Source: Halothermothrix orenii H 168
Lineage (GTDB): Bacteria; Bacillota; Halanaerobiia; Halanaerobiales; Halothermotrichaceae
Assembly: GCF_000020485.1 (NCBI RefSeq)
Contig: NC_011899.1
Span: 1,210,501 to 1,274,500 of the forward strand
Direction: 5' to 3'
DNA: 64,000 bases
Below are positions 14,087-15,670 of this stretch, one piece after another (position 1 is the stretch's first letter; each line of letters starts with the position of its first letter). The notes beneath the pieces were generated by a model that saw only the letters and a list, made by a program, of their open reading frames with translations, made no database searches and was not told where the DNA came from. A program made the position numbers and the translations under genes.

Positions 14087-14116
14087 GTTGACTTTGCAAT
14101 ATCTTTTTGTTATAAT
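14087..14116 (+). promoter_or_regulatory. Sigma-A promoter of the trpB leader
   Basis: TTGACT (14087-14092) and TATAAT (14111-14116) are separated by 18 bases. Transcription should begin near 14123, giving a leader of about 230 bases before trpB. Confidence 0.85.
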
Positions 14117-14146
14117 TAAGAAAAATTTAATTAAATAATGCTTCAG

Positions 14147-14275
14147 GAGGTGAGCTGAGCCAGTTTAAGATTTTTAGAGAGTAGAGTTTAGCAGGAGATG
14201 AGAATTTAAAAAAAGAAGTTGTTTTAGCTGAGATTGGGTAGATTAGACAGGTGAGCCGAGGTTAGGTGAGGAGAG
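14147..14275 (+). promoter_or_regulatory. Probable TRAP-binding site: array of (G/U)AG triplets in the trpB leader
   Basis: GAG or TAG triplets begin at 14147, 14152, 14157, 14175, 14179 or 14182/14184, 14189, 14195, 14200, and again at 14225, 14230, 14239, 14244, 14253, 14258, 14263, 14268, 14273. Most are spaced exactly 5 bases apart, sometimes 9 or 10. In Bacillus, tryptophan-loaded TRAP (MtrB) binds eleven such triplets with 2-3 base spacers. The 3' triplets lie in TGAGCCGAGGTTAGGT (14252-14267), which can pair with 14301-14317 as an antiterminator (GGT/ACC, AGGTTA/TAACCT, TGAG/CTCA). TRAP binding would therefore free the downstream terminator and shut off trpB. The repeats and pairings are seen; the TRAP role is inferred. 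Confidence 0.85.
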
Positions 14276-14306
14276 TATTTTGCTATATATTTTTTCAGGT
14301 ACCTAT

Positions 14307-14337
14307 AACCTTACTCACATGAGTAGGGTTTTTTTAA
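14307..14337 (+). terminator. Attenuator terminator in the trpB leader
   Basis: AACCTTACTC (14307-14316) pairs with GAGTAGGGTT (14321-14330), ten pairs including one G-U, followed by TTTTTAATTTT. It is 20 bases upstream of the trpB start and its 5' arm is shared with the antiterminator, so it is a regulatory attenuator rather than an end-of-gene terminator. Confidence 0.88.
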
Positions 14338-14356
14338 TTTTAAGGAGGAGATATTA

Positions 14357-15553
14357 ATGGCTTTAGATGTTAGACAACTGGAAGATGGTTTTTTTGGTAA
14401 TTTTGGGGGGAGATATGTTCCGGAAAAATTAGTTCCGGTTCTTGAAGAACTTAAAAAGGCATTTTTAAAATATAAGGATGATGAAAATTTTAATAAAGAG
14501 CTGGATTACTATTTAAAAGAATATGTAGGGAGGGCTAACCCCCTGTATTTTGCTGAAAAATTATCAAAAAAATTAAATGGGGCCAGAATTTATTTAAAGA
14601 GGGAAGATTTAAACCATACTGGTGCTCATAAAATTAATAATTGTATTGGTCAGGGGTTACTGGCCAAAAGAATGGGTAAAAATAGGATTATTGCTGAAAC
14701 TGGAGCAGGTCAACATGGGGTGGCAACTGCAACTGCCTGTGCTTTACTAGGTATGGACTGTGTTATTTATATGGGTGAAAAAGATACCAAACGGCAGGCC
14801 TTAAATGTATTCAGGATGGAGCTGTTGGGGGCTAAGGTTGTCCCTGTTAAGACGGGAAGCCGTACTTTAAAAGATGCAGTTGATGAGGCCTTAAAAGATC
14901 TGATTGAAAACTATGATAATACTTTTTATATGCTCGGGTCAGCGGTAGGTCCTGATCCCTATCCTACAATAGTTAGACATTTTCAGTCTGTTATCGGCAA
15001 GGAAGCTAAAAAACAGATAATTGAAAAAGAAGGTCGTCTGCCTGACTATATAATTGCCTGTGTCGGTGGTGGAAGTAATGCTATTGGTCTGTTTTATCCC
15101 TTTATTGAAGATAAGGAGGTTAATATAATTGGAGTAGAACCGGGAGGAAAGGGCTCAGAACCGGGGCAAAATGCAGCTCCCTTAAATTTTGGTGAGCCCG
15201 GTGTCTTACATGGTTTTATGTGCTATATGCTTAAAGATAAAAAAGGAAATGTTGCTTCTACCCATTCAATAGCAGCAGGACTTGATTATCCTGGTGTAGG
15301 ACCGGAACATAGCTATTTAAAAGAAACAGGTCGGGCCCGGTATACAACCATAAATGATGAAGAAGCCCTTAAGGCTTTTAATCTTCTGTCACAGGTTGAA
15401 GGTATTATTCCGGCCCTGGAAAGTTCCCACGCCGTTGCCCAGGCTATAAAGCTGGCTCCAGAATTAGATAAAAACCAGATTATTATTGTTAATCTTTCAG
15501 GCCGGGGAGATAAAGATGTCCATCAGATTGCTGGTTTAATGGACAAAATTTAA
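14357..15553 (+). CDS. trpB: Tryptophan synthase beta chain
   Basis: 398 residues, the length of canonical TrpB1. It condenses indole with serine to tryptophan using pyridoxal phosphate. Seen: [13 protein letters not shown] at the start, the PLP lysine in [10 protein letters not shown] (residues about 80-90), the catalytic glutamate in AETGAGQHG, the phosphate loop [10 protein letters not shown] and the C-terminal SGRGDKD. No trpA or other trp gene is adjacent on either side, so trpB is an orphan here; it either works with a TrpA encoded elsewhere or uses indole directly. Expression is probably controlled by the TRAP-type leader upstream. A terminator follows. Confidence 0.96.
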
Positions 15554-15641: not shown

Positions 15642-15670
15642 AAGGGAGCATGGTTGTGCTCCCTTTTTTT
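15642..15670. terminator. Bidirectional terminator between trpB and the LysM gene
   Basis: AAGGGAGCA (15642-15650) pairs with TGCTCCCTT (15657-15665), followed by TTTTT; the A-rich 5' flank serves the minus strand less well. It overlaps the last codon of the convergent LysM gene. Confidence 0.85.

What the first reader, a model, noticed from the sequence alone, without database searches (positions are those of the whole stretch)
14087..14356. TRAP-type attenuator in front of an orphan trpB
A strong promoter, about eighteen (G/U)AG triplets mostly at 5-base steps in two clusters, a candidate antiterminator (14252-14267 with 14301-14317) and an overlapping terminator form a complete Bacillus-style TRAP attenuator. 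The array is longer than the eleven triplets bound by one TRAP ring, and the gap of 23 bases between the two clusters could permit two TRAP rings or a cooperative switch. The gene controlled is a lone trpB, not a trp operon.
Basis: partly seen in the sequence, partly recalled or inferred. Interest (0 to 1): 0.8.

Follow-up and report, generated by a model that had tools for sequence, protein, structure and literature searches.

The report
TRAP attenuator controlling a lone trpB
In a heat- and salt-loving bacterium that cannot make tryptophan from scratch, the tryptophan-sensing RNA-binding protein TRAP appears to have one remaining target, the lone gene that can turn indole into tryptophan, and its binding site there is nearly twice the usual length.

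Summary
A promoter (14088-14116) is followed by 18 non-overlapping (G/T)AG triplets in two clusters (14147-14202, 14225-14275), an antiterminator (14251-14268 with 14300-14318), an overlapping terminator (14307-14330) and trpB (14357-15553). No dinucleotide shuffle reaches the array score, and nothing else in the window comes near it. The genome matches Halothermothrix orenii. It has an intact mtrB (TRAP) with the RNA-contact residues. It lacks trpA, trpC, the TrpP transporter and a convincing anti-TRAP, and it has tryptophanase. The published genome analysis calls it unable to make tryptophan. At the sensitivity used, this leader is the only evident TRAP array in the genome. Related Halanaerobiales carry TRAP arrays before orphan trpB (attenuator type in several families, start-codon type in another), trpE, trpD and trpP; trpB copies inside trp operons mostly lack one. 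So the TRAP-attenuator reading is well supported, as control of indole salvage rather than of biosynthesis. The two-ring idea is open: both clusters hold 8-9 triplets in about one ring's length, and no other leader examined has two such clusters upstream of the terminator. Not shown: TRAP binding, tryptophan response, two rings. New variant of a known kind.

The parts
14088..14116 (+). sigma-A type promoter, TTGACT-17-TATAAT with TG before the -10; transcription start expected near 14123
   Evidence: start position inferred from the -10
14147..14202 (+). (G/U)AG array 1: 9 triplets (14147,152,157,175,179,184,189,195,200) over about 11 slots of 5 nt
14225..14275 (+). (G/U)AG array 2: 9 triplets (14225,230,239,244,253,258,263,268,273) over about 11 slots of 5 nt
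14251..14268 (+). antiterminator 5' strand; contains triplets of array 2 (14253, 14258, 14263; first base of 14268)
   Evidence: helix predicted at 37 and 60 C when the RNA ends at 14318
14300..14318 (+). antiterminator 3' strand; overlaps the 5' arm of the terminator
14307..14335 (+). intrinsic terminator: 10-bp stem 14307-14330, T tract to 14335
14344..14350 (+). ribosome binding site GGAGGAG
   Evidence: sequence
14357..15553 (+). trpB, tryptophan synthase beta chain, TrpB1 type, 398 aa, monocistronic
15642..15665 (+). terminator behind trpB

Best explanation
This is a TRAP-dependent transcription attenuator for a stand-alone trpB that salvages indole. When tryptophan is plentiful, Trp-loaded TRAP (MtrB ring) binds the (G/U)AG triplets of the nascent leader. 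Binding array 2 takes away the 5' strand of the antiterminator, so the terminator at 14307-14330 forms and transcription stops before trpB. When tryptophan is scarce, TRAP does not bind, the antiterminator forms, and trpB is made to convert indole plus serine to tryptophan. Array 1 most likely either loads a second TRAP ring or offers extra early triplets that raise TRAP occupancy before array 2 emerges. Shown by computation: array, promoter, competing hairpins, mtrB, absence of trpA and trpC, recurrence of TRAP arrays in the order. Inferred: binding, the direction of the response to tryptophan, indole salvage as the role, the role of array 1.
For: mtrB present and intact. 18-triplet chain reached by 0/2000 shuffles. 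Array 2 is the only place in the genome with 5 consecutive KAG at 2-nt spacing, and array 1 is found independently by a mixed-spacing pattern; the other 4-triplet hits lie inside genes or are a short run at one start codon. Antiterminator/terminator switch with triplets inside the antiterminator. Orphan trpB leaders in relatives carry significant arrays, most with a terminator behind, while five of six trpB genes taken as lying inside trp operons do not. TRAP arrays before trpE, trpD and trpP of relatives. No trpA or trpC in this genome; PMC2626281 reports that H. orenii makes all amino acids except tryptophan and has tryptophanase next to a sodium symporter, confirmed here.
Against: No binding or expression data. 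Nine triplets per cluster, not eleven, with empty slots. No local 5' stem-loop before the triplets and no convincing anti-TRAP gene, both part of the B. subtilis system. Antiterminator and terminator are single-sequence predictions, and at 60 C the predicted energies are small. In a fold of the complete leader without TRAP the terminator also forms, so the switch must rely on the order of folding during transcription. The antiterminator is not clear in every relative (L018, L033 and L035 have only 4 nt of the terminator arm paired upstream; L037 has no terminator found). Two relatives (L014, L016) have short arrays not above chance.
Confidence: 0.88

Rival explanations
1. One TRAP ring only. 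The leader offers about 18 triplets but one 11-subunit ring binds the best subset, mainly array 2; array 1 is redundant or a relic of an earlier site. (This and the two-ring reading are sub-cases of the best explanation.)
For: Array 2 alone spans one ring's length and overlaps the antiterminator. TRAP is reported to bind stably to RNAs with 7 or more repeats, so array 2 with 9 would suffice (PMC4027176). trpE or trpD leaders of four relatives have 10-11 triplets in one window, a single-ring site.
Against: Array 1 also has 8-9 triplets in one ring's length, and such runs are very rare in this genome; a relic would be expected to decay.
Confidence: 0.5
2. Two TRAP rings bind, one per array, so that repression is steeper or begins earlier; the 22-nt linker lets two rings sit side by side on one leader.
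For: Both clusters exceed the 7-triplet threshold and span 56 and 51 nt, close to one ring's path; of the leaders examined only H. orenii has two such clusters (at least 8 each) upstream of the terminator. G002 and G025 have a second array near the ribosome binding site instead, so double sites do occur.
Against: No close relative with the same layout is available to show that both arrays are conserved; array 1 has a 15-nt hole between its third and fourth triplets.
Confidence: 0.35
3. Another control, such as a T-box or a leader peptide, governs trpB and the triplets are incidental.
For: The leader is long and has a terminator/antiterminator pair, which T-boxes also have.
Against: Rfam finds no T-box or other bacterial regulatory RNA family in the region; the triplet array is far above chance and recurs in relatives that have mtrB.
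Confidence: 0.04
4. The attenuator is a decaying remnant of a lost trp operon leader and no longer works.
For: H. orenii lacks the rest of the trp pathway (PMC2626281).
Against: Array, promoter, switch hairpins, ribosome site, trpB frame and mtrB are all intact; the orphan-trpB leader exists as a separate unit in relatives that keep a trp operon, so it is not the old operon leader.
Confidence: 0.06

Closest known systems
Bacillus subtilis trpEDCFBA leader controlled by TRAP (mtrB)
   Same: TRAP protein, (G/U)AG triplets at 2-3 nt spacing, triplets inside the antiterminator, overlapping terminator
   Different: Controls a lone trpB in an organism without trpA and trpC; two clusters with 18 triplets instead of 11; no local 5' stem-loop predicted; no convincing anti-TRAP gene
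B. subtilis trpP, trpG and ycbK (TRAP controls translation by covering the ribosome site; from memory)
   Same: The trpP of two relatives and the orphan trpB of eleven f4 genomes carry arrays over the start region
   Different: In the window gene the array lies upstream and the output is a terminator
Chlamydia trachomatis trpRBA (indole salvage under a tryptophan-sensing repressor; PMC7755916)
   Same: Tryptophan-regulated tryptophan synthase used to rescue indole in an organism without the full pathway
   Different: DNA-binding repressor TrpR and a trpBA pair, against RNA-binding TRAP and trpB alone

Membership tests
TRAP-dependent trp attenuator | TRAP (MtrB) encoded in the genome | tested here: met
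   PF02081 at 1.4e-38; NCBIfam equivalog above cut-off
TRAP-dependent trp attenuator | RNA-contact residues of TRAP kept (B. subtilis Glu36, Lys37, Lys56, Arg58, PMC4027176) | tested here: met
   Query Glu34, Lys35, Lys54, Arg56 are identical in the alignment to a solved MtrB chain
TRAP-dependent trp attenuator | Array of about 11 (G/U)AG triplets with 2-3 nt spacers | tested here: met
   18 triplets, 9 per cluster, 0/2000 shuffles reach the score
TRAP-dependent trp attenuator | Antiterminator containing triplets and overlapping a terminator | tested here: met
   Predicted folds; terminator scan
TRAP-dependent trp attenuator | Controlled gene belongs to tryptophan metabolism | tested here: met
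   TIGR00263 trpB, 636 bits
TRAP-dependent trp attenuator | Tryptophan-dependent TRAP binding and termination | not testable with these tools
   Needs biochemistry
B. subtilis trp leader in particular | 5' stem-loop before the triplets | tested here: not met
   About 24 nt between the expected start and the first triplet; no local hairpin predicted there
B. subtilis trp regulation in particular | Anti-TRAP (rtpA) | tested here: not met
   Only a sub-cut-off match in a 375-aa frame, the length of DnaJ, whose zinc finger is expected to cross-match
T-box leader | Rfam T-box match in the leader | tested here: not met
   No match
Two-ring TRAP site | Two rings bound per leader RNA | not testable with these tools
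   Sequence is compatible

The most novel reading that the evidence does not exclude
A natural leader that loads two TRAP rings side by side and so makes a steeper tryptophan switch, in a bacterium whose TRAP has been reduced to one target, a stand-alone trpB for indole salvage.
Probability: 0.33. Interest if true: 0.68.

Novelty: new variant of a known kind. Interest (0 to 1): 0.55.

Why it matters
TRAP is the textbook RNA-binding sensor of tryptophan, studied almost only in bacilli, where it governs synthesis and uptake. Here it survives in an organism that lacks the pathway, apparently with a single target, and across the order the same gene (orphan trpB) seems to be controlled by termination in some families and over the start codon in another. 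That gives a natural experiment on how a regulator outlives its operon and how attenuation and translational control replace one another. The double array makes the question of ring stoichiometry directly testable on a thermophile's TRAP.

Tried and rejected
Other pattern hits were read and rejected: inside coding frames or a short run at the start codon of a GTPase gene. T-box and other Rfam families: none (one snoRNA match below its threshold is chance). Anti-TRAP: rejected because the matching frames have the length of DnaJ. TrpP transporter: absent from this genome. The region around mtrB (L002) has no array by the scan; the tnaA leader was not scored. The named-genome scan gave only a few Halanaerobiales; two more distant Bacillota, Fusibacter and Clostridia Kmv40, have no array. 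The papers found in the held library include nothing on TRAP in Halanaerobiales; subscription papers on comparative trp regulation could not be checked, so earlier mention of TRAP sites before trpB in such genomes is possible.

Full report
Identity of the source. The window lies in a genome of 2,578,146 bases in one contig. That is the published length of Halothermothrix orenii H 168, and the paper states that the organism can make all amino acids except tryptophan and has a tryptophanase beside a sodium symporter (PMC2626281). The identification rests on that match of length plus the biology; a Halothermothrix MAG is the closest named TrpB relative.

The observation. A near-perfect promoter is followed by 21 overlapping or 18 non-overlapping (G/T)AG triplets in two clusters of nine. 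The chain score is not reached in 2000 dinucleotide shuffles. Each cluster alone is reached by 16 and 3 of 2000 shuffles, which is a harsh control because the clusters are themselves rich in GAG. Elsewhere in the 64 kb, on both strands, the best score is 3.7 against 11.65. Genome-wide, five triplets at 2-nt spacing without mismatch occur only here. The two patterns of four triplets give four hits and three hits; array 2 and array 1 are among them, and the rest lie in genes or are a short run at one start codon.

The switch. When the RNA is folded only as far as 14318, before the 3' arm of the terminator exists, 14251-14268 pairs with 14300-14318. When the arrays are held unpaired, as if bound by TRAP, the terminator 14307-14330 forms. 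It also forms in the minimum-energy fold of the complete free leader, so antitermination must depend on the order of folding during transcription; this is inferred. The antiterminator contains the triplets at 14253, 14258 and 14263 and touches the one at 14268, so TRAP on array 2 would remove it. Array 1 is not part of the antiterminator.

The regulator. The genome has one mtrB, in a cluster with fumarase and accDA genes (L002; gene names from reading the translations). It aligns over its length to solved TRAP structures and keeps the glutamate, two lysines and arginine that contact each triplet in B. subtilis (residues named in PMC4027176). No convincing anti-TRAP gene is found.

The target. 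trpB is of the ordinary TrpB1 type and stands alone. trpA, trpC and the TrpP transporter are absent from the genome. A tryptophanase and a sodium-dependent transporter are adjacent elsewhere in the genome. The simplest role is salvage of indole to tryptophan; this is inferred.

The relatives. Of 38 genomes in the order, 32 have mtrB. Leaders of orphan trpB carry arrays above chance in families f1, f2, f3 and f5, mostly followed by a terminator. In eleven f4 genomes the array covers the ribosome site and start codon of orphan trpB instead, which points to translational control, although the coding sequence there is also rich in Glu, Lys and Arg codons. Two f5 genomes have both kinds and sit directly behind mtrB (G025, G026). 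Of six trpB genes taken as lying inside trp operons (L034, L036, L038-L041), five have no array; L040 has a weak one (p = 0.018). Array-bearing leaders also precede trpE and trpD in relatives, and trpP in G014 and G022, which lack ordinary trpB. trpE and trpD were named from the translations, not by a family search. A tree of TrpB places the H. orenii protein inside the clade of orphan copies from f2, f3 and f4, apart from the f3 operon copies, so it does not look like the leftover of a lost operon; in f5 orphan and operon copies mix.

One ring or two. In windows of 60 nt, trpE or trpD leaders of four relatives hold 10-11 triplets, the expected single-ring site. H. orenii is the only leader examined with two separate windows of at least 8 upstream of the terminator. 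TRAP is reported to bind stably to 7 or more repeats (PMC4027176), so each cluster could hold a ring. TRAP can also terminate transcription without the hairpin by acting on RNA polymerase (PMC3913778), which would give array 1 another possible role. The sequence cannot decide.

Verdict. What is added here is the regulator's presence, the absence of the pathway, the apparent single target, the order-wide pattern, and the calibration of the double array. The class of mechanism is known; the target, the double array and the context make it a new variant.

Noticed in passing
L021-L031 (family f4 genomes, start region of orphan trpB): (G/T)AG arrays cover the ribosome site and start codon of orphan trpB, suggesting TRAP control of translation rather than termination.
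   Followed up: partly
L033, L035 (G025, G026): mtrB lies directly before orphan trpB, with one array before a terminator and a second array over the trpB start: two TRAP outputs on one gene.
   Followed up: partly
L152 (G014), L161 (G022): TRAP arrays at the start of trpP in genomes that keep mtrB but have no ordinary trpB.
   Followed up: yes
L156, L153 (G022 contig C5): Arrays before a ferredoxin-domain protein (with a terminator) and over the start of a probable ion or solute transporter, targets not described for TRAP as far as I know.
   Followed up: no
L042/L154 (G032): A distant trpB-like gene (38% identity, probably TrpB2 type) has an array at its probable start; this genome has no ordinary trpB.
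   Followed up: partly
L040 (G019): A trpB taken as in-operon has a weak array over its own start, unlike the other operon copies.
   Followed up: no
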